DNA from: Flammeovirgaceae bacterium SG7u.111
Lineage (GTDB): Bacteria; Bacteroidota; Bacteroidia; Cytophagales; Flammeovirgaceae
Length of the DNA stretch: 64,000 bases
Direction: 5' to 3'
Assembly (NCBI GenBank): GCA_034044135.1
Contig: CP139021.1
Coordinates: forward strand, 4,355,635-4,419,634
Part shown: in pieces, positions 50,259-58,679 of the stretch
Layout: every line of letters starts with the position of its first letter
Position numbering within the stretch: position 1 is the stretch's first letter
The notes under the pieces: model-generated
What the model was told of the DNA's origin: nothing
What the model saw: the letters and a program-made list of their open reading frames with translations, nothing else
Databases searched by the model: none
Made by a program: the position numbers and the translations under genes

Positions 50259-51305
50259 CTAGCTATTCTCTGGTCTTAAACCACGAACAGCTTTTCCAGC
50301 TCTCCACATTTCTGACTCTTCAATTTCCTTAAGCTCAGCTTCAAGTTTCACCCTGTAGTCTGACTGAGAGTTAGAATCGATTGATTTTTGAGCCTCAACA
50401 CCATCAGTAACTGACTTGTAAAGTTTCTCAAAAACTGGCTTAGTAGCTTCGTAGAAAGGACCCATCCAGTCTAGTGCACCACGCTGAGCTGTAGTAGAAC
50501 AGTTAGCGTACATCCAGTCCATTCCTTTTTCAGCTATAAGCGGATAAAGCGATTGAGTTGCCTCTTCTACAGTTTCGTTGAAAGCCTCTGATGGAGAGTG
50601 GCCATTTTCTCTAAGCACTTCGTACTGAGCACGGAAGATACCTTGGATAGCACCCATCAGCGTACCTCTTTCGCCTGTAAGATCAGAAGAAACTTCTTTG
50701 TAGAAAGTAGTTTCGAACAAGTAACCTGAACCTACGCCAATTCCAAGTGAAATTGCCTTTTCTCTTGCTTTTCCAGTAGCATCTTGGTGAACGGCGAAGC
50801 TAGAGTTCAAGCCTTTTCCTTCTACAAAAAGCCTTCTCAATGAAGTACCTGATCCCTTTGGAGCTACCAACATTACATCCACATCTGCTGGAGGAACGAT
50901 GCCAGTTTTCTCGCTATAAGTCACACCAAATCCATGTGAGAAATATAAGGTTTTACCTGCTGTAAGGTGTTTTTTAACAGTTGGCCAAAGCTGAATTTGA
51001 GCAGCATCTGAAAGTAGGTAGCAAATGACAGTTCCTTTTTCCAATGCTTCTTCAATTTCAAATAGCGTTTCGCCAGGAACAAACCCGTCTTCTACCGCTT
51101 TATCCCATGATTTTGAAGGCTTACGCTGTCCGACAATCACGTTGATACCATTGTCTTTCAAGTTTAATGACTGACCTGGGCCTTGAACGCCATAGCCAAT
51201 TACTGCAACAGTCTCATCTTTTAGCACTTCTTGCGCTTTTTCCAACGGAAATTCTTCACGGGTTACTACTTCCTCTTCTACTCCGCCAAAATTGATTTTT
51301 GCCAT
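50259..51305 (-). CDS. ilvC: ketol-acid reductoisomerase
   Basis: A 348-residue class I KARI that isomerises and reduces acetolactate (or acetohydroxybutyrate) with NADPH and Mg. The NAD(P)-binding loop is VIGYGVQGPGQSLNLKDNG (about 35-53) followed by QRKPSKSW; the Mg-binding knotted domain includes DLTGERGTLMGAIQG and the conserved EATQSLYPLI. It is the last gene of the ilv operon, 62 bp behind ilvN, and closed by the terminator at 50192-50232. The assignment is firm. Confidence 0.96.
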   Translation of the reverse strand: MAKINFGGVEEEVVTREEFPLEKAQEVLKDETVAVIGYGVQGPGQSLNLKDNGINVIVGQRKPSKSWDKAVEDGFVPGETLFEIEEALEKGTVICYLLSDAAQIQLWPTVKKHLTAGKTLYFSHGFGVTYSEKTGIVPPADVDVMLVAPKGSGTSLRRLFVEGKGLNSSFAVHQDATGKAREKAISLGIGVGSGYLFETTFYKEVSSDLTGERGTLMGAIQGIFRAQYEVLRENGHSPSEAFNETVEEATQSLYPLIAEKGMDWMYANCSTTAQRGALDWMGPFYEATKPVFEKLYKSVTDGVEAQKSIDSNSQSDYRVKLEAELKEIEESEMWRAGKAVRGLRPENS

Positions 51306-51367: not shown

Positions 51368-51964
51368 CTAGTAATGGGTATTGTTTTCGATATCTTCGAT
51401 GTACGACATTACCTTCTTCATAGGCTTGGGCAAAGCCACTCTACCAGAGCGAACAAAGCCAATTACACCATAAGGCTGAAGCTTTTCAAATAACTCAGTC
51501 GTCTCACGTTCGTGGCCAGTTTTCTCGATGATTACAAACTCTTTTTCGACTGTAATTATCCTAGCATAATGCTCACGGATAATGTGCTCGATGGTAGTCC
51601 CTCCAAATAAGGCTTCGGTAGGAATTTTGTACAATGCCAATTCTTGATAAATCACTTGGTCATCCTCATAGAAAAAAGCTTTCAACACGCCAATTAGCTT
51701 TTCAACTTGCTTGGTCACTTTTTCCATCATATCCCGGGTGGTCTTGAGCACAATTGTAAAGCGGAAAACACCTTTGTTTTCAGACTCAGAGGTAGTCAAA
51801 CTCACAATATTGATCTTTCTTCTTGTAAAGACGATCGTGAGTTTATTGACCAGTCCTATTTTATCTTCTGCAAAAACAGATAAGGTATAGTTGTTTTCTT
51901 TTTGCTCATCCATTGATTTATCATTTAAACCGGAATTGCTATTTTGTGGAGGCAATTTGGTCAT
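51368..51964 (-). CDS. ilvN: acetolactate synthase small (regulatory) subunit
   Basis: A 198-residue regulatory subunit. An ACT domain lies at about 26-95 (YTLSVFAEDKIGLVNKLTIVF, then INIVSLTTSES), where valine would bind for feedback control, followed by the ALS_SS C-terminal domain (YARIITVEKEFVIIEKTGHERETTELFEKLQPYG split as in IlvH). The N-terminal 17 residues before MDEQKENNY may not be translated, as an internal ATG at 51913 begins closer to the ACT domain. Gene order ilvB-ilvN-ilvC is conserved. Confidence 0.93.
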   Translation of the reverse strand: MTKLPPQNSNSGLNDKSMDEQKENNYTLSVFAEDKIGLVNKLTIVFTRRKINIVSLTTSESENKGVFRFTIVLKTTRDMMEKVTKQVEKLIGVLKAFFYEDDQVIYQELALYKIPTEALFGGTTIEHIIREHYARIITVEKEFVIIEKTGHERETTELFEKLQPYGVIGFVRSGRVALPKPMKKVMSYIEDIENNTHY

Positions 51965-52086: not shown

Positions 52087-53826
52087 TTATTCCAAGCGAA
52101 TATTAGAAACAGATTCGCCTGTTGGAATCATTGGAAATACATCCGTTTCTTTTTCCACCACTACTTCCATGAAGTAAGGTCCTTTGGCTGCAAGCATTTT
52201 ATCCATAGCATCCGAAAGTTCTTCTCTTTTGGTCACCTTGTTGGCTTCTACCCCAAAGCCATCAGCTAGTTTGATGAAATCAGGATTGACCATCTCAGTG
52301 AATGAATAGCGATCGTCGAAGAACATATGCTGCCACTGCCGCACCATCCCCAAGAAGCTGTTGTTCAATAGCAATACCTTTACTGGAATATTGTACTGAG
52401 CAATGGTTGCCATTTCTTGCAAGGTCATTTGAAAACCTCCATCACCCACAATCACAACAACTTCCCGATCAGGCTTGCCAAGCTTTGCACCCATAGCAGC
52501 CGGAAGGGCAAAACCCATTGTACCCAAACCACCAGAGGTTACATTGCTATCAGTTTCCATGTATTCATAGTACCTTGAAACTATCATTTGGTGCTGTCCA
52601 ACATCAGAAACCGTAATCGCTTTCCCTTCCGTTTTCTTAGAAAGAGTATTGACTACCTCAGCCATTTTGAGTTTCGTAGTATTAGCAGCGAAATCTCCCA
52701 TTATGACTTTTCTCTCTTCCACGGATTTGCAAGCATTGAACTCGTCCATCCATTCAGGGTATGATTTTTCTTTTACCAAAGGAGTCAAACCAGCTAGTGC
52801 TTCTTTAGCATCACCAAGGATAGCTACTTCAGTTTTTACGTTTTTATCTATTTCCGCAGGATCAATTTCCACATGAATTACCTTAGCCTGCTTTGCATAG
52901 CGTTTCAAATCACCCGTAACCCTGTCATCGAACCTCATGCCAACGGCGATCAACACATCACATTCGTTAGTCTTGATATTTGGTCCGTAGTTTCCATGCA
53001 TTCCCAAATACCCAACATAATTAGGGTGATTATTAGGCATAGCCGAAAGCCCTAAAAGGGTGCTGGCAAACGGAATCCCTGTTTTTTCTACAAAAGCAGT
53101 AAGCTCCGCTTGTGCTTGCGAAAGCAAAATCCCATGCCCAATCAACAAATATGGGCGCTGCGCATGGTTAATAATCTCAGCCGCCTCCTCTAACCTTCTC
53201 TGATTTACTTTAGGCTTAGGGTGATAACTACTTACTTTCTCACACTTTTTATATACGAAATCAAATTTTTCGTACTGCGCATTTTTGGTAATATCGATCA
53301 ACACTGGCCCTGGCCTACCTGTTCTAGCAATATAAAATGCTTTTGCCAATACTTCAGGAATCTCATCGGCAGAAGTGACTTGGTAGTTCCACTTGGTGAC
53401 GGGCATAGAAATACCGACCACATCGGTTTCCTGAAAAGCATCCGTACCCAACAGTTTTTTGTCCACTTGCCCTGTGATACACACCATTGCAGTTGAATCA
53501 ATCATTGCATCTGCAATTCCCGTGATCAGGTTAGTTGCCCCCGGCCCTGAAGTTGCCATGCAAACACCGACTTTGTTGGTGACTCGTGCATACCCTTGGG
53601 CAGCATGCGCCGCACCTTGCTCGTGTCTTACCAAAATATGATTCATCTTGTCCTGATAATCATACATCGCATCATAAATAGGCATAATTGCTCCGCCAGG
53701 ATACCCAAAAATAGTATCCACACCTTCCTCAAGTAGGGAAAGGAGTACTGCTTCAGACCCCGTTATACCTTCTTTTTGGATGGATGGCTTCTGAGCCAGC
53801 TTAATGTCATTTACCAATGTTGCCAT
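52087..53826 (-). CDS. ilvB: acetolactate synthase large subunit
   Basis: A 579-residue ThDP-, FAD- and Mg-dependent enzyme that condenses two pyruvates, or pyruvate with 2-oxobutyrate. Key pieces: GYPGGAIMPIYD with the catalytic Glu in VRHEQGAAHAAQG (about 45), the FAD domain, and the ThDP motif GDGGFQMTLQEMATIAQYNIPVKVLLLNN split as GDG ... NN. The frame opens 18 codons earlier at 53880, but MATLVNDIKL at 53826 is a more usual start. The operon neighbours on both sides are ilv genes. Confidence 0.95.
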   Translation of the reverse strand: MATLVNDIKLAQKPSIQKEGITGSEAVLLSLLEEGVDTIFGYPGGAIMPIYDAMYDYQDKMNHILVRHEQGAAHAAQGYARVTNKVGVCMATSGPGATNLITGIADAMIDSTAMVCITGQVDKKLLGTDAFQETDVVGISMPVTKWNYQVTSADEIPEVLAKAFYIARTGRPGPVLIDITKNAQYEKFDFVYKKCEKVSSYHPKPKVNQRRLEEAAEIINHAQRPYLLIGHGILLSQAQAELTAFVEKTGIPFASTLLGLSAMPNNHPNYVGYLGMHGNYGPNIKTNECDVLIAVGMRFDDRVTGDLKRYAKQAKVIHVEIDPAEIDKNVKTEVAILGDAKEALAGLTPLVKEKSYPEWMDEFNACKSVEERKVIMGDFAANTTKLKMAEVVNTLSKKTEGKAITVSDVGQHQMIVSRYYEYMETDSNVTSGGLGTMGFALPAAMGAKLGKPDREVVVIVGDGGFQMTLQEMATIAQYNIPVKVLLLNNSFLGMVRQWQHMFFDDRYSFTEMVNPDFIKLADGFGVEANKVTKREELSDAMDKMLAAKGPYFMEVVVEKETDVFPMIPTGESVSNIRLE

Positions 53827-53935
53827 TTTCTTACGTTTTGAAAACTTAGATATAAAAGTCCTAGCCAAAGTACCGGACAACCCGGGTTTTGCCCGGTCGC
53901 AAGGCTAGTATTGAATTAATTTATTAAAGTAAAAG

Positions 53936-55618
53936 TTAGTCCTCGTCGGTCACACAGCCTTTTGAAGCTGGAGATACCATTTTGGCATATTTATACAATG
54001 CACCACTTTTTACTTTCAATGGTGGTTGAACCCACTTAGCTCTTCTTTCGGCAAGCTCTTCGTCAGTAAGTGCCACTTCCAATTTATTGTCAATAGCATC
54101 TACCGTTATCATGTCTCCGTCTTGCACCAAAGCAATATTGCCACCCACTTGTGCTTCTGGAGTAATGTGCCCTACCACAAAACCATGAGTGCCTCCAGAG
54201 AAACGACCGTCGGTGATCAATGCCACACTTTTGCCCAACTGTGCACCCATAATAGCTGAAGTGATTTTCAACATTTCTGGCATGCCTGGTGCACCTTTCG
54301 GTCCAGAGAACCTAATTACCACCACATCGCCTTTCTGTACTTTTCCATCCTGTATTCCTTTGATTGTTTCAAATTCATCATTGAATACTCTAGCCGGACC
54401 AGTGAACTTTTCTCCTTCTTTACCACTGATTTTAGCAACAGACCCTTCCTGAGCAATATTGCCATAAAGAATTTGTAAGTGACCAGTCTCTTTCAAAGGC
54501 TTGTCAACAGGAACTATTACTTTTTGCCCTTCTTGTAATGACGGCAGTTCAGCCAAGTTTTCAGAGATGGTTTTTCCTGTAACAGTCATGCTGCTACCGT
54601 CAATCATTTCTTCTTCCAATAAAAACTTCATAACTGCTGGTGTACCACCTACCGCATCTACATCTTCCATCAGGTATTTACCACTTGGCTTCATATCGCC
54701 CAATAGCGGAGTTTTATCACTGATTCTTTGGAAATCATCTACCGTCAAGTCCACATCAAATGCTCTTGCAACTGCTAGCAAATGAAGCACCGCATTCGTA
54801 GATCCGCCCATCACCGTAATGTAGGTGATCGCATTTAAGAAAGATTGCTTAGTTACAATATCTTTCGGCTTCAAATCCATTTCCAAAAGCTTTCTAAATG
54901 CTGCTCCTACGCTCAAGCATTCCGCTTTCTTTTTGGCACTTACCGCTGGGTTCGAAGAGCTGTAAGGCAAGCTCAACCCCATTACTTCCATAGCAGAAGC
55001 CATGGTATTTGCCGTGTACATTCCACCACAAGCACCTGCTCCTGGGCAAGAATTTTGGATAACACCTTTATAATCTTCGTCGCTGATTTGCCCCGTGAAC
55101 TTCTCGCCCAAAGCCTCAAATGCAGAAACGATATTTAGTTTTTTCTCTTTGTAGCAACCTGATGCAATTGAACCTCCATACATCAAAATAGAAGGGCGGT
55201 TCAGCCTGCCCGCAGCTATCATGGCACCAGGCATGTTTTTATCACAACCAACAACGGCAACCATACCATCATAATACTGGGCATTTACCACCGTCTCAAT
55301 AGAATCAGCAATAATGTCCCTTGAAGGAAGTGAATACATCATCCCCTCCGTTCCATTCGAAATCCCATCACTCACACCTATTGTATGGAAAATCAACCCG
55401 ATAAGGTCAGCATCTTGCACGCCTGTTTTAATATCAACAGCCAAGTCGTTGAGGTGCATATTACAAGGGTTGCCCTCATAACCCGTACTTACTATACCTA
55501 CTTGTGGTTTTTTCAAATCATCTTCTGTTAGGCCAATAGCGTACAACATTGCTTGGGAAGCAGGTTGTGAAGGGTCTTGCGTAATACGTTTGCTGTGTTT
55601 GTTAAGAATTTCGCTCAT
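53936..55618 (-). CDS. ilvD: dihydroxy-acid dehydratase
   Basis: A 560-residue IlvD/Edd-family Fe-S dehydratase making 2-oxo acids for Val, Ile and Leu. Cluster-ligand cysteines are visible in GNPCNMH (about 52), VGCDKNMPG (about 125) and [15 protein letters not shown] (about 192). The substrate-binding [11 protein letters not shown] and GHITPEA are near the C-terminus. Length and motifs are normal. It lies 43 bp behind ilvE and 109 bp ahead of ilvB. Confidence 0.96.
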
Positions 55619-55661: not shown

Positions 55662-56552
55662 TTATATAATAGAATATGATTCAAAATCGTCGTGGGTGAC
55701 TCGCTGCCTATATTTGGTCAAAAGCTGAAAGCCCAGCGTATCTTCCCATTCTTTTTTAAATTCCTTTTTATTAATAGACTTTATGCCCGCAATCTCAGTT
55801 CCTGTACCAGTAAAGAAAGCTCCGTCAGCATCAAGCAACTCATCTTCCGTAAACAAATGCTCCACAACTTCAATCCCCATCTCCGTAGCCATCTCAATGA
55901 CCGTTTTACGAGTAATGCCAGGATAAATATGACCCAATGGTGGTGTATGTAGCACCCCGTCTTTTTCAAAGAAAAAGTTGTCACCAGGACCTTGTGCTAT
56001 AAACCCACCCGAGTCACGCAACAGCGCCTCGTCAAACCCCTTGTCCTTCGCCTCGTTTGTCGCCAACATCGAGTTTACATAGTGACCTGTAATCTTCGCA
56101 TCTACATAAGATGCCTTCGGATTTGGTCGCTGGAAAGACGAAATCATCACATCCAGCTGGTCACTTGTTTGGTATCTCCCCCACTTCCATGCAGAAATGA
56201 AAACATTCATCTCCTTTACTTTTGTTAGTCTCATATTCTGGCCTACCGTAATCAAAGGCCTGATATAAGCATTGGTCAAATTATTTTCCTCTAGCAGCTG
56301 GTAAGAAATACTCACCAACTCTTCAGAAGTGTATTTTACATCCAAATGGATTCGTCCTGCTGCTTTCAAAAAGCGGTCATAATGCTCTCTGGCTTTAAAA
56401 GCTTGCGTGCCCGCATCGGTTTTGTAAGCTCTTATTCCATCAAAAACCCCAATTCCATAGTGAACTGTTTGCGAATACAAATCGCCTTTTGCTTCTGAGG
56501 CCTTTATGAACTGACCATTATGAAAAACAACTGTGTTTTTGTTAAAATACAT
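55662..56552 (-). CDS. ilvE: branched-chain amino acid aminotransferase
   Basis: A 296-residue class IV (fold-type IV) PLP aminotransferase that makes Val, Ile and Leu from their 2-oxo acids. Motifs: HYGIGVFDGIRAY near the start, the Schiff-base lysine in VDAKITGHYVNSMLA (about 154), and the family tail GDNFFFEKDGVLHTPPLGH with GITRKTVIEMA. It is the first structural gene of the operon, 60 bp downstream of the attenuator terminator. Confidence 0.94.
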   Translation of the reverse strand: MYFNKNTVVFHNGQFIKASEAKGDLYSQTVHYGIGVFDGIRAYKTDAGTQAFKAREHYDRFLKAAGRIHLDVKYTSEELVSISYQLLEENNLTNAYIRPLITVGQNMRLTKVKEMNVFISAWKWGRYQTSDQLDVMISSFQRPNPKASYVDAKITGHYVNSMLATNEAKDKGFDEALLRDSGGFIAQGPGDNFFFEKDGVLHTPPLGHIYPGITRKTVIEMATEMGIEVVEHLFTEDELLDADGAFFTGTGTEIAGIKSINKKEFKKEWEDTLGFQLLTKYRQRVTHDDFESYSII

Positions 56553-56611
56553 ACCTATATCATTTCTTGGTTATCGCCTTATTTCAGACCTTAAACATTG
56601 AGCGTAAGGTA

Positions 56612-56643
56612 TAAAAAAAACCTTTCTCTGGTTGGAGAAAGGT
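56612..56643 (-). terminator. ilv attenuator terminator
   Basis: On the minus strand, ACCTTTCTC pairs with GAGAAAGGT around CCAACCA-type loop bases, then TTTTTTTT. It lies between the leader peptide and ilvE. Its 5' strand (CCTTTCTC) can instead pair with GAGAGGGG at the leader stop codon. Confidence 0.9.
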
Positions 56644-56688
56644 CTTCTTACTATATTTTTATATATACGTATAGGAACCTAACCCCTC

Positions 56689-56760
56689 TCAATCCGAAAG
56701 GACGACGACCACTACCAGCACAATAATGCTCAGTGATGATATAGAAAGGCTCCTCAACAT
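56689..56760 (-). CDS. branched-chain amino acid leader peptide (attenuator)
   Basis: A 23-residue frame, too short for usual gene calling. It starts MLRSLSISS and continues with a run rich in Ile, Val and Leu, with five consecutive Val codons (residues 16-20), then LSD and stop. Five Leu, three Ile and six Val make 14 of 23 residues, exactly the amino acids made by the operon. A terminator and alternative stems follow. When charged Val/Leu/Ile tRNA is scarce the ribosome stalls at the Val run and frees the strand that prevents the terminator. It is analogous in logic to IlvL of enterobacteria. Confidence 0.85.
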   Translation of the reverse strand: MLRSLSISSLSIIVLVVVVVLSD

Positions 56761-56811
56761 CTTTATCTTAATTAATTATATTTTTGAATATGTTATTTAG
56801 CAACTATCGAA

Positions 56812-56844
56812 CAAATATAAAATACCTTTAAATTAAAACACAAA
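56812..56844 (-). promoter_or_regulatory. candidate promoter of the ilv leader
   Basis: On the minus strand, TATATTTG (56812-56819) fits TANNTTTG and TTTG at 56841-56844 fits the -33 box. The spacer is 21 bp, slightly long. It lies 52 bp upstream of the leader ATG. Confidence 0.55.
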
Positions 56845-56936
56845 CAATCGACTCATTTTTATAAATATTTTACCTTTTCAGCCATATTTTTAGTCAATTC
56901 AAATTTGCCCAAAACTCAAAGACTACTTTCATAACA

Positions 56937-57360
56937 GACAGTATAACTCTGGTTTGCAATAAATTAAGCTCAAGACTTCAATACAAAATGCTGTTTGGGC
57001 TGTTTTTTCCTAAAAAACACGATGCCCACTTCAAACAAATCGAGCGATAAATGTAACCGCTTCGTGCGATTTGATTTCCTCCCAAGCCTTCGCCATCTCT
57101 CCCGACCCTTTGTTTTTGAACCAACCCTAAGATCTGCCACTTCTATTTCCCTTTAGTCTTCCAACAGCTTTTGCTTTAATTTGGCAAGAGCCTAAGCCTA
57201 AAAGCAAAACATTTTTTTTGTAGGACGGATCACATGCATATATAGCTCAAAAAGAAAAGGCGAATGGAGGCTATGCTCGTTTTTTGCTTTGAAGAGATAG
57301 GAAGATATTGTAAAAAGTTTGCCCAAAAAGATCAATGATAAGATGAAGTTGATATAGTTA
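56937..57360 (-). pseudogene. decayed, internally deleted copy of the methyltransferase gene
   Basis: Closely similar to 57823-58672, the intact methyltransferase gene at 57855-58679 with its downstream flank. About the first 170 bp (left end) and the last 240 bp match, while roughly 420 bp of the middle is missing (the break is near 57107, which corresponds to parent positions about 57992 and 58428). The kept parts carry many changes and frameshifts. It is an old tandem duplicate, no longer coding. Confidence 0.8.
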
Positions 57361-57569
57361 ATTACTACCAGCACTCCCCATTAATAGGGATTTTTATGAA
57401 TGGTAGATATTTTACTATTTGTTTTATCATTATTTTATCTATACCTTCAACAAGGTTGATACATAGATATATATCTAATAATTTAGCCCTAATTTGGTTT
57501 TCAACCTTTAATAAAAATAGATACTTACTTGTATCATCTCTTATTACACCATAGAAAAAGTATTTAAAA

Positions 57570-57683
57570 ATGGATATACTTCTTAACTGGACCTGGCCGT
57601 TTGTCAATGTCTTAGGACTTTTTTTTCTAGGATATGTAGTTTACTTGTTGATGAAGTCATTAAGGAAATACTTAAATAGCTAG
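57570..57683 (+). CDS. 37-residue single-span membrane protein
   Basis: A 37-codon frame starting MDILLNWTWPFVNVLG, with a continuous hydrophobic core (about 9-29, through LFFLGYVVYLLM) and a basic end KSLRKYLNS, the positive-inside pattern. A hairpin terminator (57703-57732) starts 20 bp after the stop. It lies between the methyltransferase pseudogene and the intact gene, on the opposite strand to both. Size, hydropathy, charge and terminator favour a real small protein; function unknown. Confidence 0.55.
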   Translation: MDILLNWTWPFVNVLGLFFLGYVVYLLMKSLRKYLNS

Positions 57684-57702
57684 GGCAACACTAAAAATTA
57701 TC

Positions 57703-57732
57703 AGTAGCGTAAATTATTTCATTTGCGCTACT
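57703..57732 (+). terminator. terminator of the small membrane protein gene
   Basis: AGTAGCG pairs with CGCTACT, extended by AAAT/ATTT, followed by a pyrimidine run CTCTCTTCTT rather than pure T. Confidence 0.6.
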
Positions 57733-57854
57733 CTCTCTTCTTAACCCCAATAATCCCTATTGAAAATAATATTTGATAGATTTACCCTAAGTAATCAAGT
57801 GTTACTTTATGATCATCAATAAACAGTATAACTCTGGTTTGCAATAAATTAAGC

Positions 57855-58679
57855 TCAAAACTTCAATACAAAATGCTGCTTGGGTTGTTTTTTCCTAAAA
57901 AACACGATGCCCACCTCAAACAAATCGAGCGATAAAGTAACCGCTGCATGCGATTTGATTTCCTCCCAAACCTTCGCCATCTCTTCCGACCAATAAATAT
58001 CATCGAACACAAACACCGAGTCTTCATGGGCTTTTTCCAAGCACATCGCAAAATAATTGAGCGTGGGCTCGTACCTGTGGTTCGCATCGAAAAACACAAA
58101 ATCGAGCTTTTCTAGCTCGGAAAGTTTTGCAGGCAAGGTTTCATCAATATTTCCCTTTATTATTTCGGGCGAAAGCCCAAACCATTCAAAATTATCTTTG
58201 GCTACTTGGGCTATATTGGGGCATCCTTCAAACGTGTAGAGTTTGGCAGTGGAAATTGGGGCTTGCATATATAAGGAGTTCACCCCCAAAGAAGTCCCCA
58301 GTTCTATCATCGTTTTGGGCTGGAACCTTTCCACCAACTTAAAAAGCAACTGGCTAGTAGCCGTAGGGCTTACCGACACTTTGGCTATGGAGCGCACACT
58401 TCTAGTTTTTTTTGCCTTCGTTCGTGAACCAGCCCCAAAATCCGTTACTTCTATCTGCCTTCTATCATCGCTCAGCTTGAATTTCAGCTCTGTAAGCCGA
58501 TCAAACACATAGTACTTTTTTGCAGGTCGGATCACTTGAGTGTACAACTCAAAAAGAAAGGGAGAATGAAGGCTATGCTCGTTTTTTGCTCGGCGGAGGT
58601 AGCGCAGGTAAGAAGATATTGTAAAAAGTTTGCCCAAAAAGTTTCGAATGATAAGATGAATTGATACGGTAACACCCAA
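57855..58679 (-). CDS. class I SAM-dependent methyltransferase
   Basis: A 274-residue methyltransferase. After an N-terminal helical part (about 15-60) it shows the SAM-binding motif [16 protein letters not shown] (about 140-154), the acidic motif II loop YTFEGCPN (about 164-171), and the [13 protein letters not shown] and [18 protein letters not shown] blocks of the O-methyltransferase-like (Methyltransf_24) group. The target is unknown. A decayed duplicate lies just downstream at 56937-57360. It is divergent from ychF. Confidence 0.85.

What the first reader, a model, noticed from the sequence alone, without database searches (positions are those of the whole stretch)
56600..56770. Complete transcription attenuator upstream of ilvEDBNC
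A 23-codon leader (14 of 23 residues Val, Leu or Ile, with five Val in a row) is followed by three alternative stems on the minus strand. Strand 1 is CCTTTC inside the last leader codons; strand 2 is GAGAGGGG at the stop codon; strand 3 is CCTTTCTC; strand 4 is GAGAAAGG before eight T. 1:2 protects, 2:3 is the antiterminator (all 8 bases pair, two G-U), 3:4 is the terminator. Ribosome stalling at the Val run would cover strand 1 and allow 2:3.
Basis: seen in the sequence. Interest (0 to 1): 0.72.

Follow-up and report, generated by a model that had tools for sequence, protein, structure and literature searches.

The report
Valine-sensing attenuator before ilv operon
Just before the genes that make valine, leucine and isoleucine, this bacterium carries a complete, conserved RNA switch that should stop transcription when these amino acids are plentiful; the switch is of a classic kind, but several relatives carry two or three copies of it in a row.

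Summary
On the minus strand a 23-codon leader (56760-56689, five Val codons in a row) is followed by strands 1 to 4 and eight T, ahead of ilvE-ilvD-ilvB-ilvN-ilvC. Chance does not give this: a detector found such leader+terminator cassettes upstream of ilvE/ilvD in 97 of 147 Bacteroidota loci, but in 0 of 441 shuffles and 2 of 147 antisense stretches. In the five nearest sequences the 1:2 hairpin shows compensatory change (4 of 7 pairs) and 2:3 pairs in 96% of cells. In a folding model 2:3 forms best in the nascent RNA when a ribosome sits on Val16-20 (P 0.62-0.93; 0.27-0.50 at codons 9-15, 0.05 without ribosome, 0 at the stop). Classical ribosome-mediated attenuation is therefore well supported by sequence, but untested in the cell. 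The kind is known; leader-peptide attenuation of amino-acid operons was already suggested for Flavobacterium psychrophilum (PMC9723704, passages). What looks new lies in relatives, not in the window: 26 of 85 ilvE-anchored loci carry two or three leader+terminator cassettes in series, with leaders rich in Ile/Val/Leu.

The parts
56841..56844 (-). -33 element TTTG of a Bacteroidota-type promoter (consensus recalled)
   Evidence: TTTG-N21-TATATTTG lies 52-84 nt upstream of the leader start; motif match only
56812..56819 (-). -7 element TATATTTG (TAnnTTTG); start of transcription expected a few bases downstream
   Evidence: L017 and L019 have TATATTTG upstream of their leaders too
56689..56760 (-). 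leader peptide MLRSLSISSLSIIVLVVVVVLSD and stop TGA
   Evidence: cassette in 16 of 17 family loci, window included
56701..56715 (-). control codons: Val16-Val20 (GTA GTG GTC GTC GTC)
   Evidence: model peak for P(2:3) at these codons
56695..56701 (-). strand 1 (pairs with 56691-56685)
   Evidence: 7 pairs, 35 of 35 cells paired, 4 pairs with changes on both sides
56681..56690 (-). strand 2 (antiterminator 5' half), overlaps the leader stop codon
   Evidence: 10 pairs with strand 3
56635..56644 (-). strand 3 (antiterminator 3' half and terminator 5' arm)
56619..56628 (-). strand 4 (terminator 3' arm)
   Evidence: 50 of 50 cells paired with strand 3
56613..56620 (-). U tract of the intrinsic terminator (first two T also pair in the stem)
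55662..56552 (-). ilvE, branched-chain amino acid transaminase
   Evidence: TIGR01122 268.1 bits, cut-off 245.55
53936..55618 (-). ilvD, dihydroxy-acid dehydratase
   Evidence: TIGR00110 over cut-off
52087..53880 (-). ilvB, acetolactate synthase large subunit
   Evidence: TIGR00118 over cut-off
51368..51964 (-). ilvN, acetolactate synthase small subunit
   Evidence: TIGR00119 over cut-off
50259..51305 (-). ilvC, ketol-acid reductoisomerase
   Evidence: TIGR00465 over cut-off

Best explanation
A classical ribosome-mediated transcription attenuator controls ilvEDBNC. Shown from sequence: leader, alternative stems 1:2, 2:3 and 3:4 that exclude one another, U tract, cognate operon, conservation. 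Inferred: a ribosome starts on the leader as it is transcribed. If Val-tRNA (and to a lesser degree Leu/Ile-tRNA) is scarce, the ribosome pauses on Val16-20, covers strand 1 and leaves strand 2 free; 2:3 forms before strand 4 is made and RNA polymerase reads on into ilvE. If Val is plentiful the ribosome runs to the stop codon and covers strand 2, so 3:4 forms and terminates. Without translation the 5' part of the leader and 1:2 fold up and termination is again the default. The control has to be kinetic, because in the finished window RNA the terminator wins at equilibrium in every state modelled.
For: Anatomy. Chance controls: 97 of 147 upstream regions (window and one duplicate locus included) against 0 of 441 shuffles, 2 of 147 antisense, 1 of 147 farther upstream. 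Compensatory change in 1:2; 3:4 in 50 of 50 cells; 2:3 in 96% of 50 cells. Across the phylum terminator stems differ in sequence, yet the region round the leader stop pairs with the 5' arm better than chance: 53 of 101 distinct cassettes have a 2:3 duplex matched by at most 5 of 100 shuffles, median 4; real pairs average -10.4 kcal/mol against -7.2 for swapped unlike arms, 1566 of 8224 swaps being as good. In 61 of 101 the first base of the last Val/Leu/Ile codon lies 12-17 nt before the reported duplex start, about where a ribosome paused there would end (window 9 nt from Leu21, so 12 from Val20). Nascent model, window: P(2:3) 0.05 without ribosome, 0.62, 0.79, 0.93, 0.75, 0.72 at Val16-20, 0.30 at Leu21, 0.13 at Ser22, 0 at Asp23 and stop; the four nearest relatives drop to 0-0.01 at the stop.
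Against: No RNA or expression data. 2:3 shows no double changes among the five nearest sequences, since strand 3 hardly varies, so its pair count does not beat shuffles (500 of 500 as high). The finished window RNA is 0.99 terminator whatever the ribosome does. For the window's 2:3 duplex 4 of 100 shuffles are as good. In the four relatives P(2:3) is high (0.69-0.99) at nearly all modelled codons before the last few, not only on the Val run, and without a ribosome it is 0.40, 0.87, 0.49 and 0.22 (L017-L020), so there the model shows switching off at the leader end rather than a Val-specific peak. 48 of 101 distinct cassettes do not pass the 5-of-100 mark for 2:3. One of 17 family loci (L031), 15 of 85 ilvE-anchored and 32 of 61 ilvD-anchored loci show no cassette, in part because another gene lies just upstream. 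The promoter is a motif match only.
Confidence: 0.9

Rival explanations
1. The terminator is constitutive or controlled by a protein or small RNA, and the leader ORF is accidental or encodes an independent small hydrophobic peptide.
For: No expression data; a 23-aa hydrophobic peptide could sit in a membrane (inference).
Against: Peptide sequences change between lineages while a Val/Leu/Ile-rich stretch before the terminator and its usual distance to strand 2 persist; 1:2 lies in the last codons and covaries.
Confidence: 0.05
2. The signal is read by an RNA element that binds a ligand or uncharged tRNA directly (riboswitch or T-box), not by a ribosome.
For: The 5' UTR is structured.
Against: No Rfam family, T-box or riboswitch included, reaches its gathering score in the window.
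Confidence: 0.02
3. It is an attenuator, but the leader mainly senses leucine or isoleucine rather than valine.
For: Leu21 follows the Val run, Ile12-13 and Leu15 precede it; over the surveyed leaders Ile is the commonest residue (0.258; Val 0.106, Leu 0.107).
Against: In the window P(2:3) peaks at Val17-19; it is 0.30 at Leu21 and 0.36-0.37 at Ile12-13. The four nearest relatives keep three or four Val in a row.
Confidence: 0.15

Closest known systems
Classical attenuators of E. coli/Salmonella ilvGMEDA and ilvBN (named in PMC1183508, passages read; details recalled)
   Same: Branched-chain-rich leader peptide, alternative stems, intrinsic terminator, same pathway
   Different: Different phylum; no sequence comparison was made here; Bacteroidota-type promoter motif
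Caulobacter ilvBN leader (PMC4117421, passages read) and Corynebacterium glutamicum ilvBNC attenuator (PMC11857589, PMC10272879; search listing and start of abstract)
   Same: ilv operon with a leader peptide and terminator
   Different: Proteobacterial and actinobacterial; not compared by sequence
Leader-peptide attenuation upstream of amino-acid operons in Flavobacterium psychrophilum (PMC9723704, passages read)
   Same: Same phylum and mechanism class; 'strong clues' reported
Tandem attenuators of Salmonella mgtCBR (PMC3641672, passages read)
   Same: Two leader ORFs in one mRNA leader
   Different: Senses two different signals (ATP, proline), called there 'a singular example'; the arrays in relatives of the window repeat a branched-chain signal, each unit with its own terminator. 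The window has one unit.

Membership tests
Classical ribosome-mediated transcription attenuator | short leader ORF with a run of codons for the end product | tested here: met
   conserved
Classical ribosome-mediated transcription attenuator | intrinsic terminator 3:4 with U tract between leader and first gene | tested here: met
   the simple scan did not list it on the minus strand
Classical ribosome-mediated transcription attenuator | antiterminator 2:3 that excludes 3:4 | tested here: met
   no double changes in the five nearest sequences
Classical ribosome-mediated transcription attenuator | protector stem 1:2 within the leader end | tested here: met
Classical ribosome-mediated transcription attenuator | cognate biosynthetic operon downstream | tested here: met
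Classical ribosome-mediated transcription attenuator | leader and operon share one promoter upstream of the leader | tested here: inconclusive
   motif match only
Classical ribosome-mediated transcription attenuator | translation-dependent termination and a terminated short RNA | not testable with these tools
   needs RNA data
Any Rfam 15 family (T-box, riboswitch, known leaders) | covariance-model score at or above the gathering cut-off | tested here: not met
   weak matches only
Tandem attenuator array | two or more leader+terminator units in series | tested here: not met
   one cassette in the window, and one in each of the 15 other family loci that have any

The most novel reading that the evidence does not exclude
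The window attenuator is the single-unit form of a widespread Bacteroidota ilv attenuator that in several lineages has multiplied into arrays of two or three complete ribosome-read attenuators in series, all sensing branched-chain amino acids. Since RNA polymerase must pass each terminator, readthrough multiplies: leak falls and sensitivity to starvation adds up, so the array would act as a gain amplifier built by repeating one switch.
Probability: 0.6. Interest if true: 0.65.

Novelty: new member of a known kind. Interest (0 to 1): 0.45.

Why it matters
Attenuation is textbook biology in Proteobacteria and is established in Actinobacteria; for Bacteroidota, which mostly start translation without a Shine-Dalgarno site (recalled), the papers I could search gave only general clues. 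A conserved ilv attenuator implies that ribosome and RNA polymerase are timed together in these leaders, which can now be tested. The arrays in relatives offer a natural test of the theory of attenuator sensitivity (PMC1183508, passages read): does adding like units in series steepen the response?

Tried and rejected
Rfam at gathering score and with E up to 10: nothing convincing. sigma-70-type promoter scan of 56000-58000: 8 sites against 6.9 expected, uninformative. Other Val-run leaders in the same genome: 30 sites with the five-GTN pattern, 20 of 30 fetched as loci; in those 20 none gave a convincing leader+terminator, though L177 has a weak terminator-like stretch 60 nt after its frame; the window's own site is among the 10 not fetched. 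Runs of five His codons: two sites, one in a 155-residue frame, one in a short frame without a terminator. hisG and four leuA-like genes of this genome: no ATG leader + terminator cassette in the upstream stretch scanned; these need not be first genes of their operons. Pair counting on 2:3 gave no evidence beyond shuffles. Identity between tandem units used lenient gaps and spans typed by hand; I draw nothing from it. In L056 and L057 the second terminator has no branched-chain leader that I could see.

Survey limits. Loci were drawn by IlvE/IlvD similarity plus stretches taken. Dropped before counting: 10 loci repeating a genome already held and the weak IlvE paralogue loci L033-L045 (one search kept only loci with IlvE or IlvD above 38% identity). 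Six ilvD places were neither fetched nor covered by an ilvE locus (in G201, G227, G250, G301, G366 and a second ilvD of G035). That left 147 loci, 146 distinct, L078 being identical to L015. The detector threshold (6 of 8 residues Val/Leu/Ile) was set after the first examples were seen. One search also allowed GTG/TTG starts (for instance L032 and the first unit of L060); and one search used ATG only. Ten leaders missed by the detector were added by reading translations, one of them in the duplicate L078; without them the 85 distinct ilvE-anchored loci are 17 with none, 46 one, 17 two, 5 three. A few automatic hits have long, less convincing ORFs (for example L158).

Full report
What is there. 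The window lies in an unnamed 7.7 Mb genome; the IlvE relatives found among named genomes are all Bacteroidota by their titles (14 of 14 loci; placing the genera recalled). The minus strand carries ilvE-ilvD-ilvB-ilvN-ilvC, each over a curated NCBIfam cut-off.

More than chance. The 163-nt leader RNA folds at z -4.6 against dinucleotide shuffles. A detector for a short ATG ORF with at least 6 of 8 residues Val/Leu/Ile, followed within 80 nt by an intrinsic terminator, found 123 cassettes in the last 500 nt upstream of ilvE or ilvD, in 97 of 147 Bacteroidota loci (window and one duplicate included), against 0 of 441 shuffles, 2 of 147 antisense stretches and 1 of 147 stretches farther upstream; in the whole window it found this cassette and one poor one.

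Conservation. Of the 18 family genomes, 17 have an orthologous ilvE and G015 has no close one. In those 17 loci 16 carry one cassette and L031 none (L028 and L029 read by eye, L032 with a non-ATG start). The four nearest relatives (69-72% IlvE identity; L017-L020) have leaders ending VVVTVVVLIRN, LVVVVLAKC, VVVTVVVLIHN and LVVVVLIRC. There strand 2 follows the TAG stop directly as GAGAAAGG (L017-L019) or GAGGAAGG (L020), so strands 2 and 4 are nearly the same sequence competing for strand 3. The 1:2 hairpin pairs in 35 of 35 cells, with changes on both sides in 4 of 7 pairs; 1 of 500 shuffles reaches its covariation score. 3:4 pairs in 50 of 50 cells with one doubly changed pair; 44 of 500 shuffles reach its score. 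2:3 pairs in 96% of 50 cells but varies on one side only, and does not exceed shuffles.

Mechanism. In a nascent-RNA folding model all RNA through the 13th base counted from the A-site codon is held unpaired (an assumed footprint). In the window the chance of 2:3 before strand 4 is made is 0.05 with no ribosome, 0.27-0.50 with the A site on codons 9-15, 0.62-0.93 on Val16-20, 0.30 on Leu21, 0.13 on Ser22 and 0 at Asp23 and the stop. In the finished window RNA the terminator holds at 0.99 in all states, so the decision must fall during transcription. In L017-L020 P(2:3) is high at most codons before the last few and drops to 0-0.01 at the stop; in L018 it is 0.87 even without a ribosome. So the relatives support switching off by the ribosome at the leader end more clearly than a Val-specific peak. 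Across the phylum the terminator stem differs in sequence (CCTTTCTC, CCATTGTC, CCGCCTCG, CCTGTATC, GTGCCTC and others) and the bases round the leader stop often differ to match: 53 of 101 distinct cassettes have a 2:3 duplex matched by at most 5 of 100 shuffles. The other 48 do not; L012's first cassette, L101 and L121 are no better than shuffles.

Tandem arrays in relatives. Counting by detector plus ten leaders read by eye, 70 of 85 distinct ilvE-anchored loci have at least one cassette, 26 have two or more and 8 have three; 29 of 61 ilvD-anchored loci have one. In four of the eight (L004, L010, L015 and, with a TTG start, L060) the first leader was read by eye or has a non-ATG start. The first leader is of the type MNNLNIIPSIIIANVIITAAEGML, the second and third of the type MTTNTNIIIISIIIRSFE. 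Doubles also occur in unnamed families f13, f15, f19, f25, f26 and f35 (loci, handles). A TAnnTTTG promoter element lies upstream of the first unit in 24 of 98 automatic cases but of inner units in 1 of 28, against 111 of 1960 shuffled first segments. This suggests one transcript for the array, but most first units lack the exact motif. In Brumimicrobium (L011) the stem has changed to a CCTGAC type that can pair with another part of a similar strand 2 (by eye); this pairing is matched by 7 to 15 of 100 shuffles.

Known or new. In the rows shown by ten paper searches (some searches listed only 20 of 135, 15 of 55 and 10 of 143 papers) I saw no ilv attenuator described in Bacteroidota. PMC9723704 reports strong clues for leader-peptide attenuation upstream of amino-acid operons in F. 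psychrophilum (passages); PMC7366714 mentions leader-like short ORFs in Bacteroides (passages). A comparative study by Lopatovskaya and others (2010), cited in PMC4833913 (passages), was not read and may cover Bacteroidota. For tandem arrays the aimed searches were: PMC3641672 calls mgtCBR a singular example of tandem attenuators with different signals (passages); PMC2965389 mentions a second tandem terminator in some rimP leaders (passages); PMC4974804 only refers to tandem attenuators of Mg transporters (passages); in PMC4117421 'tandem' refers to adjacent codons and to mass spectrometry (passages). I saw no report of repeated same-signal leader attenuators in these; the library is open-access only.

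Verdict. By the sequence tests available this is a genuine classical attenuator, a new member of a known kind, with the stated gaps for 2:3. The more interesting extension is the serial array in relatives, which the window itself does not have.

Noticed in passing
L004, L005, L007, L008, L010, L011, L015, L060 (upstream of ilvE): Three leader+terminator cassettes in series upstream of one ilv operon; 18 further loci have two.
   Followed up: partly
window 56933-57107 and 57818-57991: Direct repeat of about 175 nt (stretches at 95% and 91% identity), 884-885 nt apart; the second copy covers the 3' end of a methyltransferase-like ORF (57855-58679, minus; name by eye), so a partial copy of that gene end lies just upstream of the ilv promoter region.
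   Followed up: no
L005, L054, L060, L074 and others, leader coding sequence: ATCAGCATTATTATT or close variants recur in leaders of different families; ATCAGC could pair with a GCTGGT just after the stop in the flavobacterial units, which may be their 1:2 stem (by eye).
   Followed up: no
L056, L057 (upstream of ilvE): A second terminator downstream of the branched-chain cassette has no visible branched-chain leader.
   Followed up: no
ilvD-anchored loci such as L089, L102, L118: 29 of 61 ilvD-anchored loci carry one cassette, with leaders like MLSTVISLVIIRVIGISYRSGKAIC or MMQISIIITSVVVVNVIHTSASGML.
   Followed up: partly
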